Source: a virus. From it: a stretch of DNA of 38,708 nucleotides. The notes beneath the pieces were generated by a model. It was not told the DNA's origin, searched no databases, and saw only the letters and a program-made list of their open reading frames with translations. The stretch covers positions 1 through 38,708 of IMG/VR virus record IMGVR_UViG_3300009136_000020; one strand, given 5' to 3'. Positions 2,735 to 31,701 of the stretch are shown here, piece by piece. How positions within the stretch are numbered: position 1 is the first letter of the stretch; every line of letters begins with the position of its first letter. Made by a program: the position numbers and the translations under genes.

Positions 2735-3010
2735 TCATAGTCCAAGCTCCGATAGCTTCTCTTTGGCCCGCTCGACCTGGCCCGAGTCCCCTGACTCTGA
2801 TACTGTGCTCATGACCGCCCCCGACCGTAACAGGTCCCGGATTTCTGCGATGCTGGCCTGCAGCTCGGCCAGCCCTACGCCGCTGCTGAGGTACTCCCGG
2901 ATCGCCAGTCGGATCAATGCGCTACGTTCGCCTGAAGGCATGCTTTCAAGCCACATGGCGATCTGAGAATCACGCTCGGGGTCATAGCTGAACGTCACCC
3001 GTTTGCACAT
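2735..3010 (-). CDS. Ribbon-helix-helix protein, probable ParR-like partner of the actin-like protein
   Basis: This 91-aa protein has a ribbon-helix-helix pattern at residues 3-45: a beta strand (RVTFSY), then helix-turn-helix around SGERSALIRLAIREYLSSG. A helical, acidic tail follows. Its ATG at 3010 overlaps the last base of the actin-like gene's stop (TAATG), so the two are one translational unit. Type II plasmid partition operons have this order: a ParM filament protein followed by a small ribbon-helix-helix ParR that binds the centromere and caps the filament. The role is inferred from the fold pattern and this arrangement. It could alternatively be a simple CopG-type repressor. Confidence 0.72.
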   Translation of the reverse strand: MCKRVTFSYDPERDSQIAMWLESMPSGERSALIRLAIREYLSSGVGLAELQASIAEIRDLLRSGAVMSTVSESGDSGQVERAKEKLSELGL

Positions 3011-3999
3011 TACCACTGTCCTTCCGCTGATAGATACATTGCAAACTTGTAGAACCCGCGCGCGTTTGCATACACTGGCTTGTCACTCACAACCGCTTGC
3101 CGGAACGCGGCACGAATATGACGGCCCCACAGGTGAGCCCCGCCGCCGCAAACGATCACCCGCCGAAATGTGGCTGCCCCACTGCCCCAGTACTGGCTTG
3201 CAGTATCCACGATCTCCTGGCCAATCTCGGCGATGATCGGGTTGACCACCGGCCCGAGATCTATCGGCTCGCCTGCATCGTACAACTCACCCGAGACAAC
3301 TGCTTTCATGATTTGATGATCACGCATCCGAGATAGACCAGGATGCGCATTGTCCAGGTACTGACGGACGGCCCTGCAGACATCCCATGCGCCCTTGTCG
3401 GTGCCCTTCGATTCATCCGGGATATCTGACAGACCATCGACCGATAGATAGTTGACCGTTCGCCCGCCAATGTCTAACACAGCCACCCTGGAGTCAACGA
3501 GCGATGGATCAGCCACATTGCCCCGTTCGTCGAGCAGCAGGTCAAGCACAGCGCCCCAGGCTTGAGGTACGACCCGAACGCCGATCACCTTGACCACCTG
3601 CGCGTATCGCCCCTGACGTGTGAAGGAATGCGTGCCTGTGAGCCTGTCGATGACCGTCTGTTTATCGCGCTGGTAATCGGCGATGGGCAGCCCGGTAACC
3701 AGGTTTACGGTTGTCTGTGTGGCCCTGGTCAATTCGCTGTATGCACCCAAGAAATAGATCAGCCACTCGGGGGAATTGATCCACGTTGCCGTCTCTTTCC
3801 TGGCCCCGCGCGTCCCTTTTTTGACCGCTTCCTCACCCAGCAGGTATGCCCCACCCGGGCCGTCTACGATAATGGTGCTATGACCGTTCAGTGAGAAAAG
3901 ACTCTCCCGAGGCCTCACAGCAAACGACGGAAACATACAGCGCCGATCGTCTGCAACCGCCTTGATGGAACTGAAGCCGCCGTCATATCCGATGTTCAT
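3010..3999 (-). CDS. parM: ParM/StbA-type actin-like DNA segregation protein
   Basis: This 329-aa protein is an actin-fold ATPase that would polymerise to push sister genomes apart. Seen directly are phosphate-1 (YDGGFSSIKAV, residues 5-15), phosphate-2 (VAVLDIGGRTVNYLSV, about 172-187, Asp176) and the adenosine loop (VIVCGGGAHLWG, about 281-292). Length fits plasmid ParM/Alp proteins. GAGG precedes the start by seven bases, and the next gene is a ribbon-helix-helix protein in the ParR position. An actin-like protein could also organise replication inside the cell, as phage actins do, but the paired small DNA-binding gene favours segregation of a low-copy replicon. Confidence 0.82.
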   Translation of the reverse strand: MNIGYDGGFSSIKAVADDRRCMFPSFAVRPRESLFSLNGHSTIIVDGPGGAYLLGEEAVKKGTRGARKETATWINSPEWLIYFLGAYSELTRATQTTVNLVTGLPIADYQRDKQTVIDRLTGTHSFTRQGRYAQVVKVIGVRVVPQAWGAVLDLLLDERGNVADPSLVDSRVAVLDIGGRTVNYLSVDGLSDIPDESKGTDKGAWDVCRAVRQYLDNAHPGLSRMRDHQIMKAVVSGELYDAGEPIDLGPVVNPIIAEIGQEIVDTASQYWGSGAATFRRVIVCGGGAHLWGRHIRAAFRQAVVSDKPVYANARGFYKFAMYLSAEGQW

Positions 4000-5827: not shown

Positions 5828-6619
5828 TCACCAAAATAACGGCAGCTGTTTAGCTGGCCGTTCGCGTAACGCATCGCGCTGCAGGTCAGCATCTGCCAAA
5901 GGGACACGGACACCCAGACTCAAGTCAATGTACCTGTACAAAAAAAGCTGCTCACTTTTCATTCCATCCAATGGGTGATCCCGGATTTTTTCATCGAAAG
6001 CCACAGCCTCGTCGAACTCATTCGATGCATTCTCTCGCATCTCTAGCCATTCAGACGGCGAACGAAAAGGACACCCAATGCATGCGGATTTTTCGGGTAC
6101 GGGTAGCTTGTGCTGCATGAGCCAATCCGCGCAATCATTCCGTGAGAATCGCCGATCGAGCAAGGGATACCGATTTTTGATGTACTGTACTCGGCTTTTG
6201 CCGGCCCGCTTCCATTCGTCGATCGTGATCCCGATCCACTGTTCAATGGTTCCGGCTTTTGGATGTGGGGCTTTACTCGGATCAAAGCCAAGACGTTGAC
6301 GCAAGTACCGGCGCATTGGGGCAAGTTTGAAGTGCCGCGTGCATTGCCGTCTCAAATGCCCACCCCGCAGCGTCCAGAACGGCATATGTATGTGTTGCTG
6401 ACTGCCTTTCTCCCGGATATCGCCCGTTTTCAGTGTAACCACTTCGACCCCACGCCGTTCAAACCATCGGGAGTAAAAATCGAGCGTGTCATATGTGACC
6501 TGTCGTTCCCAGCCGAGGTCGCAGAAAATAGCCAGGTCCAGCCTTGGTAATTCCCCCAATGCCGACATAGCGATCATTGCCGTACTCTGCAGGCCACATC
6601 CCCAGGACGCTACTCTCAT
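5828..6619 (-). CDS. PP-loop ATPase of the PAPS-reductase/DndC-like superfamily
   Basis: This 263-aa protein begins with the adenylation loop GCGLQST (residues 7-13), followed by the LAIFCDLGWE segment typical of phage PAPS-reductase-like proteins. Four cysteines, C93 (RRQCTRHFK), C163, and C180/C183 (SACIGCP), are spaced as possible iron-sulfur ligands, as in DndC and related thiolation enzymes. Known members activate a target by adenylation and move sulfur. In phages the target is usually unknown: DNA phosphorothioation, tRNA thiolation and nucleotide chemistry are all candidates. No dndD/dndE-like genes are seen here. Its promoter region would lie in the inverted-repeat block to its right. 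Confidence 0.78.
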   Translation of the reverse strand: MRVASWGCGLQSTAMIAMSALGELPRLDLAIFCDLGWERQVTYDTLDFYSRWFERRGVEVVTLKTGDIREKGSQQHIHMPFWTLRGGHLRRQCTRHFKLAPMRRYLRQRLGFDPSKAPHPKAGTIEQWIGITIDEWKRAGKSRVQYIKNRYPLLDRRFSRNDCADWLMQHKLPVPEKSACIGCPFRSPSEWLEMRENASNEFDEAVAFDEKIRDHPLDGMKSEQLFLYRYIDLSLGVRVPLADADLQRDALRERPAKQLPLFW

Positions 6620-14834: not shown

Positions 14835-14906
14835 AGCCTGGGGCCGGACTCGAACCGGCTTCTCTCGTGTACAAGACGATTGCTCTATCCTCTGAGCTAC
14901 CCAGGC
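14835..14906 (-). tRNA. tRNA-Thr(UGU)
   Basis: A full cloverleaf reads on the minus strand. The acceptor GCCTGGG pairs with CCCAGGC; the D arm is GCTC/GAGC; the anticodon loop CTTGTAC carries anticodon TGT; a 4-nt variable loop follows; and the T arm is GCCGG-TTCGAGT-CCGGC. The discriminator is T and no CCA is encoded. The anticodon stem has one mismatch at its outer pair. It would decode ACA and possibly other ACN codons, and it is embedded in the leftward early operon. Confidence 0.92.
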
Positions 14907-17210: not shown

Positions 17211-17726
17211 ATGAACAACTTGTCAGATTGGCTTGCCAGAGAATTAGATCAAAGAGGGTGGTCACGGCGCGAATTGGCACGTCGTGCGGGTATTTCACCA
17301 ACACAGGTTAGTAACGTCGTTGCTGATATGGCTAACCCTGGGTTAGATTTTTGTGTATCAATAGCTCGGGGATTAAACGAGAGACCAGAAAAAATTATGC
17401 GCTTGGCCGGAATACTTCCGTCTCTACCTCCCGAGGTTTACGACGAACACGAGTGCTTGGAGTTATACCGGCAGCTCGATGTTCCATTACGAAGATCGCT
17501 ACTCGATTTCATTCGTAGCCTTGTGCATACCGGTGCAAGCATCCCCAAACGTGCTTCACCGAACCCCAGAGGAATTATCGATCGTATGGCGTACGATCTG
17601 GTCACTAACCCAGACGGATTATCAGAAGAAGATATGCAACAGGTTTTTGACTTAATGAAAAAGCTAAGGGGGGATAAAGGGACCCCGCGCAATGTGGCCG
17701 ACATGGGAGAAAGTGGAACGAGTTAG
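17211..17726 (+). CDS. Cro/CI-type helix-turn-helix repressor
   Basis: This 171-aa protein starts at ATG 17211. Residues 4-60 are an XRE-type helix-turn-helix (RGWSRRELARRAGISPTQVS, then NPGLDFCVSIARGLN). The C-terminal 100 residues contain two helical segments (LRRSLLDFIRSLV and SEEDMQQVFDLMKKL) that may form the oligomerisation domain. No Ser/Lys self-cleavage pair like that of LexA/CI is obvious, so induction may not depend on RecA autocleavage. It is the first gene of the only rightward cluster and faces the strong leftward promoter, as expected of the lysogeny repressor. An upstream ATG at 17181 is in frame but has no ribosome site. Confidence 0.82.
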   Translation: MNNLSDWLARELDQRGWSRRELARRAGISPTQVSNVVADMANPGLDFCVSIARGLNERPEKIMRLAGILPSLPPEVYDEHECLELYRQLDVPLRRSLLDFIRSLVHTGASIPKRASPNPRGIIDRMAYDLVTNPDGLSEEDMQQVFDLMKKLRGDKGTPRNVADMGESGTS

Positions 17727-17833: not shown

Positions 17834-18196
17834 ATGGCAAGAAAGCGAAATAGTGCAGCATCCAAGCTTGCAGGCGGGGTCATTGCTGCAATCCTGGTTA
17901 TGGTGCTCGCGCGTCTGTGTTGTCCTACTGCCAAGAAAAGGAGCGCAAGTCCCGCGGCTACCTCATGGCCGGCTACCTGGACACCGAGACCCACAGTAAC
18001 AAGCTCGGTACGGTCTCAGCCGGTAAAACCGCAAACAGATCAAAAAGTATGTGACTGTTCGCATGATCGCTATAACTGCTCTAGTTTCAGTAGTTCCCAA
18101 ACAGCGCAATTGTGCTATAATTATTGTAGGTCACTTGGGCACGGGGATATTCACAAGCTGGATAGGGATGGGGACGGTCTAGCCTGTGAGAAATGA
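17834..18196 (+). CDS. Membrane-anchored excalibur-domain protein
   Basis: This 120-aa protein has one N-terminal membrane segment (about residues 11-28, LAGGVIAAILVMVLARLCC), a low-complexity Ser/Thr/Pro linker (about 35-65), and a C-terminal excalibur-type domain: CDCSHDRYNCSSF, then two more cysteines and DRDGDGLACE. The excalibur domain is a small calcium-binding, cysteine-rich motif on bacterial surface proteins and nucleases. Here it would sit outside the membrane. As it is co-expressed with the repressor, lysogenic conversion or exclusion at the cell surface is plausible but unproven. Confidence 0.8.
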   Translation: MARKRNSAASKLAGGVIAAILVMVLARLCCPTAKKRSASPAATSWPATWTPRPTVTSSVRSQPVKPQTDQKVCDCSHDRYNCSSFSSSQTAQLCYNYCRSLGHGDIHKLDRDGDGLACEK

Positions 18197-18203
18197 GGGA
18201 ATC

Positions 18204-18296
18204 ATGGGAACCTGGGTAACGGTCTTTATTATCGTGTTGATCGGCGTTTGGGTGTTGCGAGAATGGCAGGGCAGGGGGCTATTCCGTCACAAGTGA
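18204..18296 (+). CDS. Single-pass membrane mini-protein, 30 aa
   Basis: ATG 18204 has GAGGG five bases upstream. It encodes MGTWVTVFIIVLIGVWVLRE followed by a short basic tail (WQGRGLFRHK). A single membrane helix with a positive-inside tail is clear. It is the last coding frame before the CRISPR array (41 bases on) and closes a repressor, membrane, excalibur, membrane operon. Its size makes the call moderate, but the ribosome site and hydrophobic pattern are good. Confidence 0.58.
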   Translation: MGTWVTVFIIVLIGVWVLREWQGRGLFRHK

Positions 18297-18336
18297 CCTG
18301 TAGTGCTTTGGTCAAGTCAATCACACAAGGGGTAGG

Positions 18337-18611
18337 GTTTTCCCCACACGCGTGGGGATGGACCGATCACGCCACAGGAAGCCATCACGGCGATCGCGTT
18401 TTCCCCACACGCGTGGGGATGGACCGTTTTCGGGTACCAAGTTTGGCGCACCTGTTACCGTTTTCCCCACACGCGTGGGGATGAACCGATCCTTTCTACT
18501 TGGCCTGTCCTGGGGCTTTTGGGTTTCCCCACACGCGTGGGGATGAACCGTGCAAACGCGCATAGGCACCCACGCGCAAGGAGTTTTCCCCACGCGTGTG
18601 GGGATGAACCG
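18337..18611 (+). CRISPR. Cas-less type I-E CRISPR array: 5 repeats, 4 spacers
   Basis: Five 29-nt repeats lie at 18337-18365, 18398-18426, 18460-18488, 18522-18550 and 18583-18611. Spacers are 32, 33, 33 and 32 nt. Repeats begin GTTTTCCCCAC and end GTGGGGATGAACCG (repeats 1-2 have GGACCG), with a CCCCAC/GTGGGG stem, matching type I-E repeats. Repeat 4 begins GGTTT, and repeat 5 swaps the loop to GCGT while keeping the stem. The variant last repeat suggests the leader is on the left, so crRNAs would read rightward. No cas gene exists in this genome, so function would need host Cascade/Cas3. It lies 41 bases downstream of the lysogeny operon and may be transcribed with it. Confidence 0.95.
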
Positions 18612-18648: not shown

Positions 18649-18882
18649 GTACACATGGTCACCTGAAAACGTTCATCCATGTATACCTCGACCGTTGCCG
18701 CTGTCCCCCGAAGCCCACACGGTTTGGGTCCGTGAGGTCCCCGGTTCGAGTCCGGGCGCCCCGACTTGGGTACACATGGTGATGGTATTTTACCTGTCCG
18801 TGTGTACCCAGGTTTGTTTTTCCTCCATTCCTGGCCGACCCGGGCGCACACGGTTTGTTTGACTGGGAGGGGCACATGGTCA
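18649..18882. repeat. Short repeats flanking attP (candidate integrase arm sites)
   Basis: GTACACATGGT occurs at 18649-18659 and 18770-18780. TGGGTACACA occurs at 18767-18776 and inverted at 18801-18810. CACATGGTCA occurs at 18652-18661 and at 18873-18882 across the integrase start codon. CACACGGTTTG occurs at 18716-18726 and 18847-18857. They sit on both sides of the tRNA-like core, as arm-type integrase or excisionase sites do. The copy over the start codon could let integrase repress itself. No gene was found in 18612-18875. Confidence 0.5.
18718..18764 (+). other. attP core: 3' half of tRNA-Pro(UGG)
   Basis: This 47-bp stretch is the exact 3' portion of a tRNA: anticodon stem-loop CACGG-TTTGGGT-CCGTG (anticodon TGG), variable AGGTC, T arm CCCGG-TTCGAGT-CCGGG, acceptor strand CGCCCCG and discriminator A. 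The 5' half (CGGGGCG, D arm) is missing upstream, so it is not a tRNA gene. Phages that integrate into tRNA genes carry this piece so that the host tRNA is rebuilt. It lies 111 bases from the integrase start. Confidence 0.85.
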
Positions 18883-19850
18883 GGGAGATATCATTATCGA
18901 GAGCCATAGACGGCTTCATGTTAGATCGTGCCGCCGAACGTCTATCCTCGCACACGTTGTCAGATTACAAGAATGCGTTCCGAAAGTTCCAGACATTCTT
19001 GCAGGTCGATCCGATCCTTTGCCAGATCACCATGGCGGACATTCAGCGTTTTATGATCTGGCTGAGTAAAACGCGATTCACGCCTGCAGGCATTGCCCCT
19101 AGGCTAGCAAAGAGACTCAGTGCAAAAAGCATCCTCAACATTCACACAGGGATCTCGGCTCTCTGGACGTGGGCCATGCACAACGGATATGCCGATGATC
19201 ACATTGTCCGTCAGGTATCCGCGCCCCGACCGGCTAAGACTGCGATCATCCCGTTCACTAAGCAGGATATCGAGTTACTTCTAGTTGCCTGTGATCGAAC
19301 GTCTGAGTATTCACGGCCAGGGAAACGCGCAGCATCAAACGCCCGCCCGACCGCCGAACGTGACAAGCTGATCATTCGTTTTTTACTCGATACAGGGGTC
19401 CGGGTCAGTGAATTGTGTGGGCTGCGCGTGGGGGATGTGGACTTGCGAAATCACCGCGCGCGCGTGCTGGGGAAAGGCTCAAAAGAACGATACGTGCCGA
19501 TCGGGAAACGCCTTGCAAAAGCCGTGTGGCGATATCTGGCTACCCGGAAAGTCGAAAGCAGTGATCCGCTGTTCATCGACCGGGCTGGCAGTGTGCCGAT
19601 CACGCGCCATGCTGTATGGCGATTGCTGAAACGCGCTGGAAAGCGTGCCCAGGTCGCACACGTGCATCCGCATCGGTTTCGCCATACGTTTGCAATCAGT
19701 TACCTCAGGAATGGCGGAAAAGAATTTACACTTATGGAAATACTAGGGCACTCGACCATGGAAATGACCCGCCGCTATGCAAGGATCGCACAGGTTGATA
19801 TACAAAGTGACCACAGACGGGCCAGCCCGGTGGATAATTGGGGGCTTTAA
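18876..19850 (+). CDS. int: Tyrosine integrase (XerC/D-like phage integrase)
   Basis: This 324-aa recombinase integrates and excises the phage. Residues 1-115 form the SAM-like core-binding domain. The catalytic domain shows R176 (DTGVRVSEL), K203 (GKGSKER), H266 and R269 (HPHRFRH), H292 (LGHSTMEM) and the nucleophile Y301 (RRYARI), so all active-site residues are present. The start ATG 18876 has GGGAGG six bases upstream; an earlier ATG at 18855 has none. It is beside the tRNA-Pro attP. It lacks an N-terminal arm-binding domain of the lambda type. Its last four bases overlap the end of the converging tail gene. Confidence 0.95.
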   Translation: MVREISLSRAIDGFMLDRAAERLSSHTLSDYKNAFRKFQTFLQVDPILCQITMADIQRFMIWLSKTRFTPAGIAPRLAKRLSAKSILNIHTGISALWTWAMHNGYADDHIVRQVSAPRPAKTAIIPFTKQDIELLLVACDRTSEYSRPGKRAASNARPTAERDKLIIRFLLDTGVRVSELCGLRVGDVDLRNHRARVLGKGSKERYVPIGKRLAKAVWRYLATRKVESSDPLFIDRAGSVPITRHAVWRLLKRAGKRAQVAHVHPHRFRHTFAISYLRNGGKEFTLMEILGHSTMEMTRRYARIAQVDIQSDHRRASPVDNWGL

Positions 19851-20244: not shown

Positions 20245-21555
20245 TTAACTCGCTGCAAACCAGTTGAAATAAGCTGTCTTTGTCGTCGTCGTGTTGGAAC
20301 GAACAAAAAGCCCTGATCGGATTGGGGTCCAGCCCGTACCATAGTTGATGTTGATCACGTACTTGTCTTCAACCCCTATGCGCGCTTGATACTGTGTGGT
20401 GCTATTTTTTTTCAGGTAAAGGGGGACCAGTTGCAAAGGCAAAGTGGGATCTGATAATTGTGTCTCAGTGATCCCGCCTCCGCTATCCTGATAACGAACG
20501 AACGGCCCCATGCTAAACGACGTGTATGTGCCGATCCCACTTTTCAGGTAGAGCTCAATAAATGTGTCATCACTACCTGTATCCCAGCGAATCCCCGCCG
20601 ATACATTACTTGGTTCGAGAGCAACCTGCGCTCCGAGCCGGGATGTATATGCTGGGTCTGTGCATAGAAAGCAGGTTACTCCATTCTGTGTGTTGTCCGT
20701 TTGAGCCAACAGAAAGTGTTCTCGGAAATCAGGATCGACCGTTCCCCCCGGCGCAATGATCCATGACCATATCCCATTAAGTGCTGCTGTGGTAAAATGG
20801 TCTAAAACTGTGATCGCCGGAAAGCCACTCAGCCAATCCGCGATCAAGCCATAGCTGCCAACGTTGACGTCGGCCCCAACAAGTGAGAGCGAAAGATCGC
20901 CCGTCCCAGCAAGCTGAGCAATGGTATCAAATGAGCTCCCGCCGTCCCAAACCCGAAAAAGCAGGTCATAGGTGGAACTGGGAAAGTCCACATAACAGGG
21001 ATCTTGTCTCAATCGCCACGCGCGCCCCGCCCAAAATGCCGCTGCTATGGCTAGGAGTTCGTCTCCCGCGCCGGTGGCATCACCGATCTCGTGCCCGCTG
21101 CCCCAATCGCCGAGCGCCGTGAACAGTGGCGATGCGCTGACGCTCGGCGTGATATCCCCGCCGATGATTTCCCCGGATAACTGGCCCCCCTCGCCGCCTG
21201 TGCCGTCGTGAACGTGATCCCGCAGTTTCAGATCGGCCCGTTGCTCGGGGACGTGTGAGCCTGCACTCGTTTCGGCTAGACTAGTTAGGAACCATTGGTT
21301 ACGTCCGCCAAGGCTGACCTTTTTCAACCATACATAGTCATCCACAGCCAAAGCAACAAAGTTGGTCGCTGCTGCTGCTTCGATATAGACGACTTCCCCG
21401 GTGTTTACGAGTTCGCACTTGATTCCGCTTGTGGCTCTGTTGCTGACCGCTATCACCTTGGCATAATACAACTTGCTTTGCTTATGTGCAATTTCTTTTG
21501 CATTCTGTGCCAGCATTCGCCCCGTTTCGCCCGCTGTGAGTTTGGTCTTGGTCAT
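20245..21555 (-). CDS. Probable receptor-binding tail protein with lectin-like C-terminus
   Basis: This 436-aa protein starts at ATG 21555, overlapping the upstream stop (ATGA). Residues 30-95 (YYAKVIAVSNRATSGIKCEL, then VDDYVWLKKVSLGG) look like an OB-fold of the kind found in tail-hub proteins. RDHVHDGTGGEGGQLSGEII (about 120-140) is a linker repeat seen before fibre tips. Residues 250-436 (LDHFTTAALNGIWSWIIAPG, ending in AYFNWFAAS) match concanavalin/laminin-G-type jelly rolls that bind glycans. This would recognise host surface sugar. The catalytic residues of a depolymerase are not visible. Confidence 0.68.
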   Translation of the reverse strand: MTKTKLTAGETGRMLAQNAKEIAHKQSKLYYAKVIAVSNRATSGIKCELVNTGEVVYIEAAAATNFVALAVDDYVWLKKVSLGGRNQWFLTSLAETSAGSHVPEQRADLKLRDHVHDGTGGEGGQLSGEIIGGDITPSVSASPLFTALGDWGSGHEIGDATGAGDELLAIAAAFWAGRAWRLRQDPCYVDFPSSTYDLLFRVWDGGSSFDTIAQLAGTGDLSLSLVGADVNVGSYGLIADWLSGFPAITVLDHFTTAALNGIWSWIIAPGGTVDPDFREHFLLAQTDNTQNGVTCFLCTDPAYTSRLGAQVALEPSNVSAGIRWDTGSDDTFIELYLKSGIGTYTSFSMGPFVRYQDSGGGITETQLSDPTLPLQLVPLYLKKNSTTQYQARIGVEDKYVININYGTGWTPIRSGLFVRSNTTTTKTAYFNWFAAS

Positions 21556-23051
21556 TGGTCCGCCTGGCTCCTGATTGATACACTGCCCCGCCACGTGCCC
21601 ATGCCTGGATCAATGTTGAAATCGATCCTGGTCACATAGTTGTATGTACGATCTGGGGTCCCAAGCTCCGTGTTGGTGATCCGATTGCTATCTGGTGTGT
21701 AGGTTAATCCTACCCAATCGTACAAATCCAAGACTGGCATTAGAAAAATAGACAGATCCGCTTGTAACTGGGGCTGTAATTTGTACCAGTATCTTTGAGC
21801 CCAGGCGTCAAGCGTGCCTTGCGTCTCGCAGATCAAGCCTCCATGCTCTGTTCTTGGCCCCTCGCCCCAATCATCATCCGCTGGGTATTTGCTTGAAATC
21901 TCGGATAGATCCGCCTTTACAGCTGTTAGCACGACCTGCCCCACAGTTGGATCAGTTGGATTCGGTGGATCTGCATTGGGATCATCCACATCTTCCCATT
22001 GCAGATCAATCGACTCGAATAGCTCAGTTGTTAACGTGAATTCGTTTGCTTCCGCCCCGTAATCATCCCAGCGGATGTCAGGGTCAGGGAGACACCAAAT
22101 GTTTCCCACACGATCCGAATAGATCATGCTGAACGTCCGCGCTGCCACATCGGCGATCACGTCCCAGATTGGCCCCCGGGAGAGCTTCAAATTTGTAACG
22201 CTCGTAGGATCATTGTAAATGTAGACATTTTGGCGATTGTTGATCCCCGATTCCTGAAACAGCACCCACACGGCGTCAAGTGCCGTGAGATCCGAAATGA
22301 TCACCTCTTCATCACTTCCCGAGGTCGCAAAGAAGACCTCGATAGTATCACCGTACTGCAATAGCTGCTCGGGGGATATGAGTTTGAGCTCAATGTATGC
22401 CTGCTCGCTGTCCTCGTGGATTGTGCGGATACGGTCAACGTAGCCATAGAACACGCCGTGTGACCACTGCAGGCCGCCGAATGTGTCTTCTGAGCCGTTC
22501 CAGTAAGCATCAAGGACAAGCAAGATCCCTTTTTGCCGTTCCAATCCGCTGCAGTCCCCAAATGCCTTGACGCCCATTTCCCAGCCACCACTTTCGATGT
22601 CAGCATGGAAGGACGTCACTTCCCCAATATTCAACGATGATCCGCCATATGCAATGTATCCGAAATCGCCCGATCCGCTCCCATCGGTCTGGAGTTCGAT
22701 CCGGTCAATCCCCGATCCGCTTGCCGGTGCGTAGTAGGTGATCGCAGTCCCCGAGTCCCCTGAGATCGACCCCGCCGCAGCCCCACCCGCTTCCCCGGTC
22801 AATGTCCAGGAGTGCCCAGTTGACGCCGATCCGCCGTGCTGCAGGGAGCGATTACCGTACAGTGAAATCGAACCACTGTTATCAATCCAACTGTGCCGGG
22901 GATCAATATTGATCATGTCCGACCAGGTATAGGTGCCTGGGGATATGGTGCCGATCCTGGTCTGCTCGCGCTCCGGGAATGACACAAAACGACATGCGGC
23001 CCGTTGGTGAGTGCTCTTGAGTTTGGTAAGTTGGTCACCTGTAAGCGCCAT
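21552..23051 (-). CDS. Tail tip / baseplate hub protein
   Basis: This 499-aa protein follows the 117-aa tail gene. Its first 50 residues resemble a distal-tail N-terminus, and a carbohydrate-binding-module-like insert occurs around 60-150 (SLYGNRSLQHGGSASTGHSW, then IDRIELQTDGSGSGDFG). The remainder has hub-like strand repeats and SDLTALDAVWVLFQESGI. Position after the tape measure and before the receptor-binding protein is that of the tail-associated tip protein. Exact homology is not recognised, so hub/baseplate is inferred from order and beta-rich content. Confidence 0.68.
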   Translation of the reverse strand: MALTGDQLTKLKSTHQRAACRFVSFPEREQTRIGTISPGTYTWSDMINIDPRHSWIDNSGSISLYGNRSLQHGGSASTGHSWTLTGEAGGAAAGSISGDSGTAITYYAPASGSGIDRIELQTDGSGSGDFGYIAYGGSSLNIGEVTSFHADIESGGWEMGVKAFGDCSGLERQKGILLVLDAYWNGSEDTFGGLQWSHGVFYGYVDRIRTIHEDSEQAYIELKLISPEQLLQYGDTIEVFFATSGSDEEVIISDLTALDAVWVLFQESGINNRQNVYIYNDPTSVTNLKLSRGPIWDVIADVAARTFSMIYSDRVGNIWCLPDPDIRWDDYGAEANEFTLTTELFESIDLQWEDVDDPNADPPNPTDPTVGQVVLTAVKADLSEISSKYPADDDWGEGPRTEHGGLICETQGTLDAWAQRYWYKLQPQLQADLSIFLMPVLDLYDWVGLTYTPDSNRITNTELGTPDRTYNYVTRIDFNIDPGMGTWRGSVSIRSQADQ

Positions 23052-23052
23052 A

Positions 23053-23406
23053 TCACCCCACGATCACAATCCGCATGGTCACATCGCTTCTGATCCGCGT
23101 ACCCCACATGCCGCTCGGTTCCTCTGCATAGGCTACCACAGACCGAAATGACGTCGGGAGAGTCCCCGACCGGTCCGGGATTGTGAATGTCCCCGAGCTA
23201 TCTTTATTCGTGTTCCAGATGTCCCACAGGTTGTCATACTCTGCAGGTGTCAATGCGCTCCAACTCAGCACCCCGCCATACAGACCCTGCGCAACAGGCT
23301 TGCCGCTCGCGAATCGGGCTACGACCGGGGCATTCTCGGGGGTCCAGGTAGATGGATCGGGGCAGGTTGACAAGGTGCCATCCCACGCCTGAAAGTATGT
23401 GCTCAT
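23053..23406 (-). CDS. Distal-tail small protein, 117 aa
   Basis: ATG 23406 overlaps the tape-measure stop (ATGA), so this start is chosen over 23448. The protein is a compact beta-type (MSTYFQAWDGTLSTCPDPST, VARFASGKPVAQGLYGGVLS, GTFTIPDRSG). In siphophages the gene directly after the tape measure usually encodes the distal tail protein or an adaptor, but this one is short (117 aa against about 200-250), so it may be only a ring component. No closer family is recognised. Confidence 0.62.
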   Translation of the reverse strand: MSTYFQAWDGTLSTCPDPSTWTPENAPVVARFASGKPVAQGLYGGVLSWSALTPAEYDNLWDIWNTNKDSSGTFTIPDRSGTLPTSFRSVVAYAEEPSGMWGTRIRSDVTMRIVIVG

Positions 23407-24977
23407 TGTGCCCCTCCAAACGATGGCACAGGCTGATGACCATACCACGAACTGACCATATCCCCATTATTCTGGCCAATCCTGCCATCTACCTGCGCAG
23501 ACAAGCGCATGTCGTCATCTACAGATACCCGGATGTCAACCGCTTGCCGTTCGCTGGCTAGGGGGACGTTGGCTACCCCTTGCGCCCACTTTGCACCCAG
23601 CGCCTGACCGCCAAACAGTTGGCCGAGCTTCCCGGCCCCGACCGCTGCAGTAAGCCGCATGGTGTTCGCAGCGCCGGCAAATGCCTCCTGTGGTTTGAAT
23701 ACAGCTCGCCCGACCGCGCCGCCAAAAGAAGATGGTGCCTGCTGTCCGCCCGCTTGTGGTCCTACTACGTCCCCGAGGAATTTTCCAGCCCCCTGGAACA
23801 GCGGCTTGAGCGATTCAGCGAGTCCCGCTATGATCTCGGCCCATTCCCTAAACCCCTCGATCAGTAGATCCAGGCCGCCGCTTTCCGCCCACTCGACAAG
23901 CTTCTGGATCCCCTCGGCGACAAGCGTGCCCAAACTTTCGGCCAAACGCGTTACCATTTCGTCGTTGTCTTCAAGCCAGGTCAGCACCTTGTCAGATGGC
24001 CCGGCCAGTGCCTCAAGGATCTTGCCGCCTGTAACCTGTCGAAACTCTAGCCAGTGGTTTTTGAGCTTTTGGATCTTGCCGATCATAGAGCCACTGACCT
24101 TGCTCATCATTGCATCGCTGGCCCCGAGCTTGGAAAGCAAAGCGTTGATTTCGCCCGCCCCCAAGCCTTTCTTGATATTCTCAGCCAACTTCTCACCACA
24201 AGCGCCCGCGCCTTTGGCCTTGCTAACTACGCTTGTAAACTGGCCCAAGGCTTTTTCACCGCCGCCGCCCACTTGCCCCACGGCTTTTGATACCGTGTCC
24301 CCCGTCTCTTCAGCAATACCGGCCATGGCTTTGAGCTTTTCCGCTGGTATGTCGAGCAGCATGCTTGCCCTGGAAAAGTCCCCTTCACGCAAGGCGAACA
24401 CAACCCCCATTTTGCGCTGTCCAGGCAAGTCTGGACGTAACGCAGCCACCCGCGCGATCGCTTTGGCGTATTCGTTGGCTTGTGCAATATCACCATCCGA
24501 GATCACGGCTAGGGTGACCGCCTGCTCTTGGATACCGGCCAGGTCAAGGCCAAAGCGTTGGGCAGTGTCTGATAGAGTGCCCATCATAGCGTTGGCTTTT
24601 TCAGCACTCCCGAGGATGCTCTCGAGGGCAAACGTTTGTTTTTCCAAGGTCATGGCAGGTTTCATGATAGCCTCACCGATAGCCTTGGCTGCATTCGCCG
24701 CCGCCCCCAGGACCTCTTTTAGCAGGATTACCTTGTTGGTTAGCGCTGCAATCCCCGCTGCCCCCAACTTTACCCCACTGGTCAGGCCCGTCGCAAAGTT
24801 CTTTGCTGACTTGCTGACCGTGCCCAGCGCTTTCGCTGCCCTGTTGGCTCCCTGTGTGATCGGCTGTCCAAAGTTTGTACCGCCAAATTTCTTGAGCAGC
24901 GTTCCAGCCCGCTGGGTCGCCCTTTGCAAGGGGGCAAGGTCGCCCTTGAATCTCGTTGTTACTGCAGGCTCACTCAT
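23403..24977 (-). CDS. Tail tape measure protein
   Basis: This 524-aa protein is rich in Ala/Gly/Lys, mostly helical, and has a hydrophobic core (VKLGAAGIAALTNKVILLKE and VLGAAANAAKAIGEAIMKPA) followed by repeated amphipathic helices. The N-terminus (FKGDLAPLQRATQRAGTLLK) is typical of tape measures. The final 100 residues contain glycine/alanine-rich and beta elements. Length sets the tail: about 1.5 angstrom per residue gives roughly 80 nm. ATG 24977 lies one base after the frameshifted chaperone stop. It is preceded by the expected G/GT chaperone pair. Confidence 0.9.
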   Translation of the reverse strand: MSEPAVTTRFKGDLAPLQRATQRAGTLLKKFGGTNFGQPITQGANRAAKALGTVSKSAKNFATGLTSGVKLGAAGIAALTNKVILLKEVLGAAANAAKAIGEAIMKPAMTLEKQTFALESILGSAEKANAMMGTLSDTAQRFGLDLAGIQEQAVTLAVISDGDIAQANEYAKAIARVAALRPDLPGQRKMGVVFALREGDFSRASMLLDIPAEKLKAMAGIAEETGDTVSKAVGQVGGGGEKALGQFTSVVSKAKGAGACGEKLAENIKKGLGAGEINALLSKLGASDAMMSKVSGSMIGKIQKLKNHWLEFRQVTGGKILEALAGPSDKVLTWLEDNDEMVTRLAESLGTLVAEGIQKLVEWAESGGLDLLIEGFREWAEIIAGLAESLKPLFQGAGKFLGDVVGPQAGGQQAPSSFGGAVGRAVFKPQEAFAGAANTMRLTAAVGAGKLGQLFGGQALGAKWAQGVANVPLASERQAVDIRVSVDDDMRLSAQVDGRIGQNNGDMVSSWYGHQPVPSFGGAQ

Positions 24978-27715: not shown

Positions 27716-28618
27716 TTACCACCTATCCCCGTCGAGCAGACGTATACAGGCCTCTTCCATTTCCTTGCCCTGGCGTGCCGCCGTAAATCGGTTGTCGATC
27801 ACCCAGGATCGCACATCGGACGGCTTCAGGCTTTCGGCCAAGTCGATCAGTGCTGCGAGTCCGTATTTTGTATCACCCAGGTAGCCCCCGGGGGGCTGTA
27901 CGTACTCGGGCAAGGCTCCCTTGTCATAGCCTACGACCGGCGTACCACAGGCCATGGCTTCGAGGGGTACGAGGGGACCAGCATCGATGCTATAGGGGCA
28001 CAAGCACACACATGCATACTGCAGAGCTTGAACTTTGTCCCGGTCCTTGATCATCCCGTCCGGACAGCCTGACCCATAGGCTCGCAACTTTCGCCCTGCA
28101 ATCTCTGCAATCCGCTCGGCATCTTTCAGCCCCTTGTGCCAGATTTCGCTTCCCAGGAAAATCATGTGTCTTGATACGCGCTGATCATACAGGGTAAACT
28201 CGTCAATCCTGACCCCATTTCGTACAACGATCCCAGGTAGGTCAACATAGGACCGTTGATCCTTGCTCACAAAGACGGCATTGTGAGCCTTCGCGCTAGC
28301 CCGGTCCTGGAACCATGCGATCGTCGGGAGAGGCTGCGCATGTGCGAGGGTATGCGTGTGTCCAGCGTCCAGGGCAACATCATATTCAGCCTGTCGCGCT
28401 GTGATATCCGCCATTAACAGCGCCTCGCCGTTTGGCGTATTATCTGGCGTCGTGTAGACATTTCCGCCCGGAAGACGGCTCCCTAACAGCCCATACAGGC
28501 TGACCGTGTGCCCCCTTGCGATCAGCTCAGTACAGACGTTGAACACGGCCCGCCCGAGGCCATGCCCCCAGGCCCAAGGTGTTGGATAGATCGTGTCGCT
28601 CAGAACGGCGATCCTCAT
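27716..28618 (-). CDS. GT4-type glycosyltransferase
   Basis: This 300-aa enzyme starts at ATG 28618, overlapping the GT2 stop (ATGA). It has a GT-B fold with an N-terminal MRIAVLSDTIYPTPWAWGHG and a glycine-rich loop, then VRNGVRIDEFTLY. The C-terminal nucleotide-sugar site is DAGPLVPLEAMACGTPVVGY, carrying the conserved acidic residue of GT4 enzymes. It is shorter than typical GT4s (350-400 aa). It probably adds a sugar from a nucleotide donor. Its place within the virion genes suggests a virion protein or DNA-linked target, but the acceptor is unknown. Confidence 0.85.
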   Translation of the reverse strand: MRIAVLSDTIYPTPWAWGHGLGRAVFNVCTELIARGHTVSLYGLLGSRLPGGNVYTTPDNTPNGEALLMADITARQAEYDVALDAGHTHTLAHAQPLPTIAWFQDRASAKAHNAVFVSKDQRSYVDLPGIVVRNGVRIDEFTLYDQRVSRHMIFLGSEIWHKGLKDAERIAEIAGRKLRAYGSGCPDGMIKDRDKVQALQYACVCLCPYSIDAGPLVPLEAMACGTPVVGYDKGALPEYVQPPGGYLGDTKYGLAALIDLAESLKPSDVRSWVIDNRFTAARQGKEMEEACIRLLDGDRW

Positions 28619-29298
28619 ACAACCCCCTGTGCGTGAAACCAATCATGGTGATACTCTCGTAACTCAGCGAGGTTTTCCTCATGATGTGGCAAGAGTCTTT
28701 CCAGTCTGGACCCCACCCGTACACGATGGTTGAGAATCACTCGATCCAAACAGACCGGTGTACATCCCGCCGCAATCAGCGAGATCAGCAGATCCCAATC
28801 ATCATATGCCGTATCCCGCCAGCCACCCACCGCGTGCAAGATGTCCGTCTCTGCTAGATAGTTGTACGGTCCTACACTGTAGCTATACAAAGCTTGCGCT
28901 GTTGGCTGTTTGCATTTGATCACGCGGTCCGAAACAAGTCCGAAATCCCGATAGTGTCCTAGGACAATCGGCGCTTTCACTCCCTGGGCCGCCATGCGCA
29001 TCACTGCCAACGTGCCGGGAGGGAGTAGGTCGTCAGGATCAACCCGGATCACGTATCGCGTTCTCACATCTGCAAGTAGGCTATTCAGCGAGTCCGACAA
29101 AGGAAGCGTCTCGGCCCGATAGACCACATTGTAGGTAGGCAAAAGCTGTGCCACGCGCATACACGGCTCCCACTCAGCTGGCCCGTTCGCGCTGATCAGA
29201 ATTTGCACCTTGGGACTGTTGACCCTGATCGATAACACGGCCTCAGCCAACCATTGGGACGTGCCGCACACAGACATTAAGACGGTAATATCACCCAT
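28615..29298 (-). CDS. GT2-type (GT-A) glycosyltransferase
   Basis: This 227-aa protein (start at MGDITVLMSVCGTSQWLAEA; an ATG 12 bases upstream is an alternative) shows the GT2 order: an opening strand, NSPKVQILISANGPAEWEP, the metal-binding RVDPDDLLPPG and a late acid pair YDDWDLLISLIAAG. DxD and ED motifs point to a metal-dependent inverting enzyme that uses nucleotide sugars. It overlaps the GT4 stop (ATGA at 28618-28615) and the sulfotransferase by 8 nt. It belongs to the modification cassette in the structural operon. Confidence 0.86.
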   Translation of the reverse strand: MGDITVLMSVCGTSQWLAEAVLSIRVNSPKVQILISANGPAEWEPCMRVAQLLPTYNVVYRAETLPLSDSLNSLLADVRTRYVIRVDPDDLLPPGTLAVMRMAAQGVKAPIVLGHYRDFGLVSDRVIKCKQPTAQALYSYSVGPYNYLAETDILHAVGGWRDTAYDDWDLLISLIAAGCTPVCLDRVILNHRVRVGSRLERLLPHHEENLAELREYHHDWFHAQGVV

Positions 29299-29806
29299 AG
29301 TACTTTGCATCCTCGTTCGTGAAAACCGGCACCTGTGCCCGTGGATTCAATCCCAGGGTTGTGAGCAAGCCCGTTGCGCCGTTCAAGAACAGCGATTCAT
29401 ACGAAACCATGATCACCTGCGCGCTTGTCTCGGCGCAATAGAACATGATATGCTTCCATGCCTGCCCGATCCTGTGCTCGGCGTGCTCCAGATTGCGCGC
29501 GTGTTTGCGCTCGACTTGGCTGTGTACGAGTGACCAAAGGTCTCGAACCACTACAAGGATCGTCACGACATACCCACACTGTTGCATGCGCTTGACCAGA
29601 TCGCTGATGTCGGGGCACATGCCAGCGTGCGGGACCGATCGCCGGAAAACGATCGTCTCGGGGCAGTCGTCAAACGCGCCTAGCCAGTTGGGACCATCCA
29701 TAGCCTGACCATGCCCCGACTGACCGTAGCACCCAGCAGCGATCAGGGCTTTTGTGAGTACCCGTGTACCGCTCGATTCTGGCCCGATCACCAGGTACGC
29801 TTTCAT
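29291..29806 (-). CDS. Sulfotransferase-like protein (PAPS-type)
   Basis: This 171-aa protein begins MKAYLVIGPESSGTRVLTKA, in which the GPESSGTR loop (8-15) is like the 5'-phosphosulfate-binding loop of PAPS sulfotransferases. A later VVVRDLWSLVHSQ (R88, S92) matches the 3'-phosphate-binding segment. It is shorter than most (250-300 aa), so either it is a compact phage form or it has lost some substrate loops. It would transfer sulfate from PAPS to sugar or protein. ATG 29806 overlaps the GT4-FkbM stop (ATGA). Confidence 0.72.
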   Translation of the reverse strand: MKAYLVIGPESSGTRVLTKALIAAGCYGQSGHGQAMDGPNWLGAFDDCPETIVFRRSVPHAGMCPDISDLVKRMQQCGYVVTILVVVRDLWSLVHSQVERKHARNLEHAEHRIGQAWKHIMFYCAETSAQVIMVSYESLFLNGATGLLTTLGLNPRAQVPVFTNEDAKYYG

Positions 29807-31701
29807 GCTGCGCCCCCTTGGATCTTGATGCGGACGTGATCGGGGTCAATGTGCTGCTTGACCAATTCCAGGAGAGCGATCGGATCTTCCCCGTCTACTT
29901 GGTGAAATTCGCCGCAAATGTAGTCAGTGTGGTCCAAGATTTCAGGATAGGCCCTCAGTATCTCGTACTCGGCCCCCTCACAATCGATGATCAGCAACCG
30001 GACCTGATCATCAAAATCCAATTCGTCTCGGGCTGCTATAGAACGGACAGGCTTACCAGGAGCAAAGATTGACGCCCCGCCGCTGTTGCCGTCTGGCGTC
30101 CCTAAGGTTACCTTGCGCCCATCGCCAGTGATTGCTCGGTCAATGAGAATCACGCGCCCCCAACCATTAGCCTCCAGATTGCGCTCCGCCCGCTTGTAGT
30201 TTGCGAGGATGGGCTCATAGGCCCACACGCGGACTTCTGGGTGTACCTTTGCAAACCAGCTTGCGATCTCCCCAACATGCGCACCGATTTCGATCACCGT
30301 ATCATCTGGCCGAAAGTCGATCTGGTCAAGCTGATAATCTTTGGTAGCCTCCCGACAAACGATCCGCGCAATACCGACATCGGGGTCATCCTCAATATCG
30401 AGGTCTGTGCCACAAATGGACATTGGGAACCCGTGCGGGATGACCACGCCGTTGCGCTGTTCAGCGTCACAATCGAGACACGGGGTACTCATAGACCCAT
30501 CGGTGTTATAGATCCCTATCGGCGCCCATCGGTGCGGGCGCTTTTTTTCTACAAGTTCGGTCTCTACTCGCTCCAAAAATGGCTTCCAGTAATTTTCAAC
30601 CACCCGATCCCACGAGTACCGCTGCGCTTGCAATTTGCCCCCGCGTGCCTGGGCTGACTGTTCCGATTCGCCCCAACTGTACACCTGTTCGAGTGCCTCG
30701 TGAATGTTGTCAATGCTTGGGACGGCTACCCAACTATCCAATGGTGTCCAGGCCCGTTGCACTGGTTCGGTTGCGATCCCGTTCCATGTCAATTCCGTCA
30801 TGCTTGTGAAGGCTGTGGTGATGACTGGACATCCCGCCGCCTGTGCTTCAAGGATTGGAATCCCAAACCCCTCGCTCATAGACGCTGCTAGCAACGCATC
30901 ACTGGCCCGGTAGACCAGCGCCATATACCCCTCATCAAGCATGCCAGTTGCACGCAAGTACTGGTCAGGAAAGCGAACGCTTGCGGGATTGATCCCACAT
31001 GCGGGGATCAGCTTGCGAAAGTCAACGCCCTGGCTGTCCTGTTCGTTCGTATGCAAGTACAATAACGCCTCGGGGTGATCCTCAGCGAATCGAGCGAATG
31101 CTTGCAGGTTTTCCGGGAACGCTTTCCGGCTTGGCATCGATTTGTTCGCCGCTACCATCGAAACGATATAACCATCCTCGGGAAGCTTCAACTTTGCCCG
31201 CGCCTCTGTCTTTGGTGTGTCCGCCTGTAGGAATACATCCGAAACCCCATGCGGGATGTACGGACAATCGAGCCCCGTCGCTTTTGCCGATTCCTGACCA
31301 AAACGCGCATAGTTGACCGGGTAATCAGCCGTTTGCGCGCGTTCCAAGACTAGCGACGGAATGGGATCATGATCAACCGGGAACCAGCAACACCATGCCG
31401 CGCCCGCTTCCCGGATCATATCGCCGTAGTTTGGCGGTAATACCCAAATGTCTTGCAGGCTGATCACGAGATCGGCCTTAAAGTGCTTGATGTGCCCCTG
31501 AACGATATCCACGCCCCACGGATCACGAAAGGCCGGGTAGACCCTGAAATCAGGCGTCTCGATAACGGCCCCGGACAGCCCATACCAAGCAAATTGAGCT
31601 ACCTCGTATCCCAACGCCTTGAGCTTCGGCAGCAGGTGCTTTGCTTGCACACCGTACCCTGTCGGTGCCCAGGCCGCGTTACTTGACCATAAGATTCTCA
31701 T
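29803..31701 (-). CDS. GT4 glycosyltransferase fused to FkbM-type methyltransferase
   Basis: This 632-aa bifunctional enzyme has two domains. Residues 1-385 form a GT4 domain: MRILWSSNAAWAPTGYG, the nucleotide site SMSEGFGIPILEAQAAGCPV (E277, E285) and VITTAFTSMTEL. A charged linker (about 385-440) follows. Residues 460-632 are a FkbM methyltransferase: VIEIGAHVGEIA (SAM loop, 469-480), WAYEPILANYK and LLIIDCEGAEYEIL (570-582). It could add a sugar and methylate it. It opens the four-gene cassette placed between the decoration-type capsid gene and the connector gene, behind a strong hairpin at 31719-31775. Confidence 0.9.
   Translation of the reverse strand: MRILWSSNAAWAPTGYGVQAKHLLPKLKALGYEVAQFAWYGLSGAVIETPDFRVYPAFRDPWGVDIVQGHIKHFKADLVISLQDIWVLPPNYGDMIREAGAAWCCWFPVDHDPIPSLVLERAQTADYPVNYARFGQESAKATGLDCPYIPHGVSDVFLQADTPKTEARAKLKLPEDGYIVSMVAANKSMPSRKAFPENLQAFARFAEDHPEALLYLHTNEQDSQGVDFRKLIPACGINPASVRFPDQYLRATGMLDEGYMALVYRASDALLAASMSEGFGIPILEAQAAGCPVITTAFTSMTELTWNGIATEPVQRAWTPLDSWVAVPSIDNIHEALEQVYSWGESEQSAQARGGKLQAQRYSWDRVVENYWKPFLERVETELVEKKRPHRWAPIGIYNTDGSMSTPCLDCDAEQRNGVVIPHGFPMSICGTDLDIEDDPDVGIARIVCREATKDYQLDQIDFRPDDTVIEIGAHVGEIASWFAKVHPEVRVWAYEPILANYKRAERNLEANGWGRVILIDRAITGDGRKVTLGTPDGNSGGASIFAPGKPVRSIAARDELDFDDQVRLLIIDCEGAEYEILRAYPEILDHTDYICGEFHQVDGEDPIALLELVKQHIDPDHVRIKIQGGAA

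What the first reader, a model, noticed from the sequence alone, without database searches (positions are those of the whole stretch)
18337..18611. A cas-less type I-E CRISPR mini-array carried by a temperate phage, placed in the lysogeny region
Five 29-nt repeats with 32-33-nt spacers sit 41 bases after the last gene of the rightward repressor operon and before attP/int. No cas gene is in the genome. Phage and viral mini-arrays that use host Cas proteins against rival viruses are known in archaea and a few bacteria. A I-E example positioned for expression in the lysogen would arm the host against competing phages. Repeat 5's changed loop with conserved stem suggests selection on structure.
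Basis: partly seen in the sequence, partly recalled or inferred. Interest (0 to 1): 0.88.

Follow-up and report, generated by a model that had tools for sequence, protein, structure and literature searches.

The report
Temperate phage carrying borrowed CRISPR array
A complete 38.7-kb temperate phage, probably of Chloroflexota bacteria, carries a small CRISPR array (5 repeats, 4 spacers) but no cas genes; its repeats are identical to those of a complete type I-E CRISPR system in a bacterium of the same class, so the phage could use its host's Cas proteins against other invaders, although none of its four targets could be identified.

Summary
Five 29-nt repeats with 32/33/33/32-nt spacers lie at 18337-18611 (0 expected by chance). 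The record is circular and complete: terL runs across its ends. No cas gene was found. The array sits in the accessory slot between the repressor/Excalibur operon and a tRNA-Pro(TGG)-derived attP upstream of int. Syntenic relatives have the same slot without an array, which argues against misassembly. The integrase family occurs in 41/346 genomes of one Chloroflexota class and 0/199 Acidobacteriota, so the host is probably Chloroflexota. A genome of that class has R1/R2's exact repeat beside a complete I-E operon, cas3 to cas2. R1 is preceded by AGG, as in 7 of 11 cellular arrays next to cas2, so the leader junction looks authentic.

No spacer matches the window, about 140 related phage loci, 50,697 phages, 72,556 plasmids, or IMG/VR (20-base seed patterns). 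Targets, and so function, are unproven. Repeat 5's 'changed loop' is the normal repeat of another class member, not evidence of selection on structure.

Cas-less phage arrays are known (cyanophage N-1, C. difficile prophages, SPV1/2). This is a new member of a known kind: subtype I-E, in a Chloroflexota phage, in the lysogeny module.

The parts
17211..17726 (+). Cro/C1-type HTH repressor, first gene of the rightward lysogeny operon
   Evidence: PF01381 E 3.5e-10; syntenic in relatives L149, L160, L147, L157
17834..18196 (+). Small secreted/membrane-anchored protein with an Excalibur domain; often the last gene before attP in relatives
   Evidence: PF05901; homologues just before attP in L158, L159, L165, L154, L151
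18094..18121 (+). Possible extended -10 promoter (TTCCCA-16-TATAAT) that could transcribe the array; weak
   Evidence: 10/12 match with TG, but about 2 sites expected by chance in the region
18204..18296 (+). 30-aa putative membrane peptide ORF directly before the array
   Evidence: translation
18297..18336 (+). Short (40-nt) putative leader ending in AGG at the leader-repeat junction
   Evidence: AGG precedes the first repeat in 7 of 11 cellular arrays that follow cas2e
18337..18365 (+). Repeat 1, GTTTTCCCCACACGCGTGGGGATGGACCG
   Evidence: identical to the array of Chloroflexi MAG DUUT01000048
18366..18397 (+). Spacer 1 (32 nt)
18398..18426 (+). Repeat 2, same sequence as repeat 1
18427..18459 (+). 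Spacer 2 (33 nt)
18460..18488 (+). Repeat 3, ...GGATGAACCG variant
   Evidence: identical to repeats of Aminicenantes MAG (L007, L014) and Anaerolineae MAG L020
18489..18521 (+). Spacer 3 (33 nt)
18522..18550 (+). Repeat 4, one change at position 2 (GG...)
18551..18582 (+). Spacer 4 (32 nt)
18583..18611 (+). Repeat 5 (leader-distal), loop GCGT instead of ACGC, same 6-bp CCCCAC/GTGGGG stem
   Evidence: same loop as the G975 consensus repeat
18718..18765 (+). attP core: 3' part of tRNA-Pro(TGG) (anticodon arm, T arm, acceptor 3' strand)
   Evidence: tRNA-Pro 3' halves at the same place before int in relatives; intact tRNA-Pro(TGG) next to the related int in genome G1042
18855..19850 (+). Tyrosine integrase
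   Evidence: PF00589 E 2.7e-39; phrog_1

Best explanation
This is a genuine type I-E CRISPR array that a temperate Chloroflexota phage took from a host array and keeps in the accessory slot between its repressor operon and attP. The phage has no cas genes. In a lysogen whose host has a I-E system, the array would be transcribed rightward (read-through from the repressor operon or a local promoter). Host Cas6e would cut the repeat hairpins, and the crRNAs with AUGGACCG or AUGAACCG handles would load host Cascade and direct Cas3 to the spacer targets, most likely competing phages or plasmids. Shown: the array, the absence of cas in the ORFs scanned, the repeat identity with a complete I-E system in the probable host class, and the genomic context. 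Inferred: transcription, processing, loading, targets and benefit.
For: Array anatomy is exactly I-E: 29-nt repeats with a stable hairpin (z about -3), 32/33-nt spacers, degenerate leader-distal repeats. R1/R2 are letter-identical to 16 repeats of a Chloroflexi MAG array lying beside cas3-cse1-cse2-cas7-cas5-cas6e-cas1-cas2. Host class: integrase relatives in 41/346 genomes of the class that includes this MAG versus 0/199 Acidobacteriota; terL relatives of 40-50% in 4/400 Chloroflexota. In 45 Chloroflexota genomes, mostly integrase-positive, 7 have repeats within 3 mismatches and 6 have Cas6e. The leader-end AGG is shared with cellular arrays. Syntenic relatives have the same slot without an array. 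Published precedent: cyanophage N-1, cas-less, 5 repeats/4 spacers, array transcribed during infection (PMC4916379).
Against: No spacer matched anything: window, held relatives, phages, plasmids, IMG/VR seed patterns. Only about 15% of the integrase-positive class genomes have Cas6e, so many potential hosts could not use it. No other phage of the family has the array. Promoter evidence is weak.
Confidence: 0.6

Rival explanations
1. Passenger: a host array fragment picked up by recombination or imprecise excision and now drifting, with no function for the phage.
For: No target for any spacer; R4 and R5 differ from the consensus and R1/R2 differ from R3-R5; unique to this phage among about 140 related loci; it lies in the slot next to attP where accessory DNA accumulates.
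Against: All four spacers have legal lengths, all hairpins are intact, and repeat differences match variants seen in cellular arrays. The leader junction is retained.
Confidence: 0.25
2. RNA anti-CRISPR: the repeats are decoys (Racr-like) that occupy host Cas6e/Cas7 and inhibit host immunity against the phage.
For: Phages do encode single repeat units that inhibit I-E and other systems (PMC10651486); the hairpins are well kept.
Against: Known Racrs are solitary repeats; five regularly spaced repeats with proper spacers would give normal crRNAs. Spacer lengths are kept within 1 nt.
Confidence: 0.1
3. Assembly chimera: a host CRISPR array joined to phage sequence by the assembler.
For: The record comes from a virus-record collection built largely from metagenomes; repeats are risky for assembly; no second record with the same junctions was found.
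Against: Both flanks are phage genes syntenic in relatives (repressor and Excalibur on the left, attP/int on the right), and the record closes as a circle through terL.
Confidence: 0.05

Closest known systems
Cyanophage N-1 CRISPR array (Chenard et al. 2016, PMC4916379)
   Same: Phage with a cas-less array, 5 repeats and 4 spacers, host-like repeats, no spacer matches
   Different: I-D-like 37-nt repeats, about 120-bp AT-rich leader, phage reported as lytic; [quoted passage not shown]
Clostridioides difficile prophage CRISPR arrays (Hargreaves 2014, as cited in PMC4916379 and PMC6293099; PMC10778935)
   Same: Host-type arrays carried by temperate phages, usually without cas
   Different: Different subtype and host (I-B from own knowledge); generally in the structure/morphogenesis module; spacers match other phages
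SPV1/SPV2 virus-borne mini-CRISPR arrays (PMC6858448)
   Same: Cas-less viral arrays using host Cas, with a leader
   Different: Archaeal viruses, 1-2 spacers, reciprocal targets identified
Phage solitary repeat units / Racr (PMC10651486)
   Same: Host-type repeats in phages without cas
   Different: Single repeats that inhibit Cas, no spacer arrays
Chloroflexi MAG DUUT01000048 type I-E system
   Same: Identical repeat sequence to R1/R2, 61/62-nt period
   Different: Chromosomal, complete cas operon, at least 18 repeats, unrelated spacers

Membership tests
Type I-E CRISPR array | 28-29-nt palindromic repeats of the CCCC...GGGG...ACCG type with 32-33-nt spacers | tested here: met
Type I-E CRISPR array | Repeats matching arrays next to I-E cas genes | tested here: met
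   L247 operon matches I-E models TIGR02547, 02548, 01869, 01868, 01907, 03638, 01873 and Cas3; same repeat
Type I-E CRISPR array | Leader upstream of the first repeat | tested here: inconclusive
   40-nt gap with AGG junction as in cellular arrays; no other leader similarity
Virus-borne mini-CRISPR array using host Cas | Array in a viral genome without cas genes | tested here: met
   circular phage record; no cas hits in the ORFs scanned
Virus-borne mini-CRISPR array using host Cas | Repeats identical to host arrays | tested here: inconclusive
   identical to a genome of the probable host class; the actual host species is unknown
Virus-borne mini-CRISPR array using host Cas | Spacers target related viruses | tested here: inconclusive
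   no match in relatives, IMG/VR seed patterns, phages or plasmids; the search would miss diverged or unsampled targets, and published members (cyanophage N-1) also lack matches
Virus-borne mini-CRISPR array using host Cas | Transcribed and processed into crRNA | not testable with these tools
   needs small-RNA data
Racr / solitary repeat unit | Single repeat without spacer array | tested here: not met
   five regularly spaced repeats

The most novel reading that the evidence does not exclude
A temperate phage carries a complete, leader-competent I-E array that is updated in trans by the host's Cas1-Cas2 during lysogeny, giving the prophage its own growing immune memory kept beside its repressor. 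The shared ending of R1 and R2 would fit duplication of the leader-end repeat at a new acquisition.
Probability: 0.12. Interest if true: 0.75.

Novelty: new member of a known kind. Interest (0 to 1): 0.45.

Why it matters
If the array works, a prophage would supply guides to its host's immune system and so choose which competitors are excluded. It would extend phage-borne cas-less arrays to subtype I-E and to Chloroflexota phages, with the array sited in the lysogeny module and apparently keeping the leader junction; phage mini-arrays surveyed earlier were reported to lack leaders (PMC6858448). The syntenic empty slot in relatives gives a clean comparison for tests.

Tried and rejected
(1) Integrase as a single query in IMG/VR: no relatives; a two-sequence alignment then found 59. 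(2) Spacer searches: window and all held loci up to 9 mismatches, phages and plasmids by blastn (the N-spaced queries may be insensitive; one search repeated the phage search with the plain array), and four seed patterns in IMG/VR: nothing. One 85.7% match over spacer 3 and its repeat edge to a Bacillus phage (E 0.9) is chance. (3) Spacers of the cellular and two viral arrays (215 + 150, including overlaps and the phage's own four) against the phage family: no convincing match. (4) attB search in 400 Chloroflexota genomes with 3 mismatches over 42 nt: none, so the host species is not among those sampled. (5) Acidobacteriota as host phylum (the Aminicenantes MAG shares R3): few and only partial terL matches, no integrase. 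(6) Rfam: only sub-threshold chance matches. (7) Repeat 5 as structure-driven compensation: rejected.

Full report
Observation. The window holds five 29-nt repeats at 18337, 18398, 18460, 18522 and 18583 with spacers of 32, 33, 33 and 32 nt. A repeat pattern matches only these five places; 0 are expected in shuffles. Each repeat folds into the same 6-bp CCCCAC/GTGGGG hairpin with a 4-nt loop. R1 and R2 end in ATGGACCG, R3 to R5 in ATGAACCG; R4 has a change at position 2 and R5 has loop GCGT instead of ACGC.

The genome. G000 is a 38,708-bp virus record. The terL frame on the minus strand continues from the end of the record into its start, including the Walker A motif, so the record is circular and complete. 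It encodes terminase, portal, scaffold, capsid, primase-helicase, RecT, exonuclease, an actin-like partition protein, a C1-type repressor and a tyrosine integrase. Scans with PHROGs, Pfam and PADLOC show no cas gene in the proteins tested, which include all the large ones; some small ORFs were not scanned.

Position. Rightward order: repressor (17211-17726), Excalibur-domain protein (17834-18196), 30-aa ORF (18204-18296), 40-nt gap, array, then a 48-nt 3' half of tRNA-Pro(TGG) (18718-18765), then int (18855-19850). The tRNA half is attP. Many integrase relatives in IMG/VR have a tRNA-Pro 3' half at a similar distance before int, and the best integrase match in a Chloroflexota genome lies directly beside an intact tRNA-Pro(TGG). 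In relatives with synteny, the repressor (L149, L160, L147, L157) or the Excalibur gene (L158, L165, L154, L151) lies before attP in the same order and strand. The six slots read out hold other sequence and no array, and no locus of the family holds the repeat. The array is thus an insertion in an accessory slot; both flanks are phage, which argues against a chimera.

Host. TerL relatives of 40-50% identity occur in 4 of 400 Chloroflexota genomes; Acidobacteriota give only partial matches of 40% or less in 3 of 297. Integrase relatives (E <= 1e-40) occur in 41 of 346 genomes of one Chloroflexota class and in 0 of 199 Acidobacteriota. That class includes G052, the Chloroflexi MAG whose array of at least 18 repeats has the R1/R2 sequence letter for letter. 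Its array follows cas3, cse1, cse2, cas7, cas5, cas6e, cas1 and cas2, matched by I-E models. Among 45 Chloroflexota genomes, mostly integrase-positive, 7 hold repeats within 3 mismatches and 6 hold Cas6e. The host species itself was not found: no genome of 400 has the attP core within 3 mismatches.

Leader. In these bacteria the array follows cas2e after a short gap. Of 11 arrays with cas2e directly upstream (L008, L010, L011, L012, L013, L014, L017, L237, L242, L245, L246), 7 have AGG immediately before the first repeat and one has GGG (counted by eye, and cas2e in some loci recognised by reading the translation). The phage array has GGGGTAGG there. I infer that the leader-repeat junction was retained; the rest of the 40 nt is not alike. 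Degeneration at R4/R5 agrees with a leader on the left.

Repeat 5. The R5 loop is the consensus loop of arrays in G975 (GTTTTCCCCACGCGTGTGGGGGTGAACCG), and loops differ freely among genomes of the class (ACGC, GCGT, ATGC, GCAC) over a near-constant stem. Selection on the stem is general to I-E repeats; R5 adds nothing special. The R5 palindrome is the exact reverse complement of the others, so a hairpin flip is another simple origin.

Targets. No spacer matches within 9 mismatches in the window or held relatives beyond one chance-level match at 9; none in 50,697 phages or 72,556 plasmids; none in IMG/VR with 20-base patterns covering positions 1-23 with positions 6, 12 and 18 free. These searches miss diverged targets. 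So rival exclusion is plausible but unproved.

A second case. IMG/VR record G001 (177,773 bp) carries six repeats of the same kind, five with exactly R1's sequence, between genes, with different spacers and no Cas6e match. Phage carriage of this I-E repeat type has therefore probably occurred at least twice.

Known background. Cyanophage N-1 has a cas-less array of five repeats and four spacers without matches, transcribed during infection (PMC4916379); C. difficile prophages carry host-type arrays; SPV1/SPV2 mini-arrays mediate exclusion (PMC6858448; PMC11656645). The review defines viral mini-arrays as having one or two spacers, and earlier surveyed phage mini-arrays were said to lack leaders. 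This array is a larger, I-E member of that kind. I judge function as trans-acting guides at about 0.6, passenger 0.25, decoy 0.1, artefact 0.05.

Noticed in passing
L024 / L114:7380-7713 (IMGVR_UViG_3300014613_000001, 177,773 bp): A second, unrelated large phage record with a six-repeat array of the same I-E repeat (five identical to R1), between genes and with no Cas6e match in the record.
   Followed up: partly
G053:C61:41302-41329 (L020, L217) and G805:C310:34340-34367 (L218): Solitary I-E-type repeats in Chloroflexota genomes with no Cas6e match; could be single repeat units (Racr-like) or array remnants.
   Followed up: no
window 5828-6619 (-): PAPS reductase-family gene with similarity to SspD of phosphorothioate DNA-modification systems (PADLOC E 4.5e-14); no other Ssp/Dnd gene seen.
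   Followed up: no
window 3010-3999 (-): ParM/Alp-type actin-like partition protein in a phage that also has an integrase; may allow plasmid-like maintenance.
   Followed up: no
window 14835-14906 (-): Phage-encoded tRNA-Thr(TGT).
   Followed up: no
window 27716-31701 (-): Three glycosyltransferase genes, one fused to an FkbM-type methyltransferase, within the structural region.
   Followed up: no
window 20245-24977 (-): Three long ORFs (449, 499, 524 aa) in the tail region without PHROGs or Pfam matches.
   Followed up: no
G055:C151 and C57 (L118, L124): Terriglobia MAG with several copies of a tRNA-Pro 3' end, only one in a recognised tRNA gene in the two loci checked; looks like repeated integration at one tRNA.
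   Followed up: no
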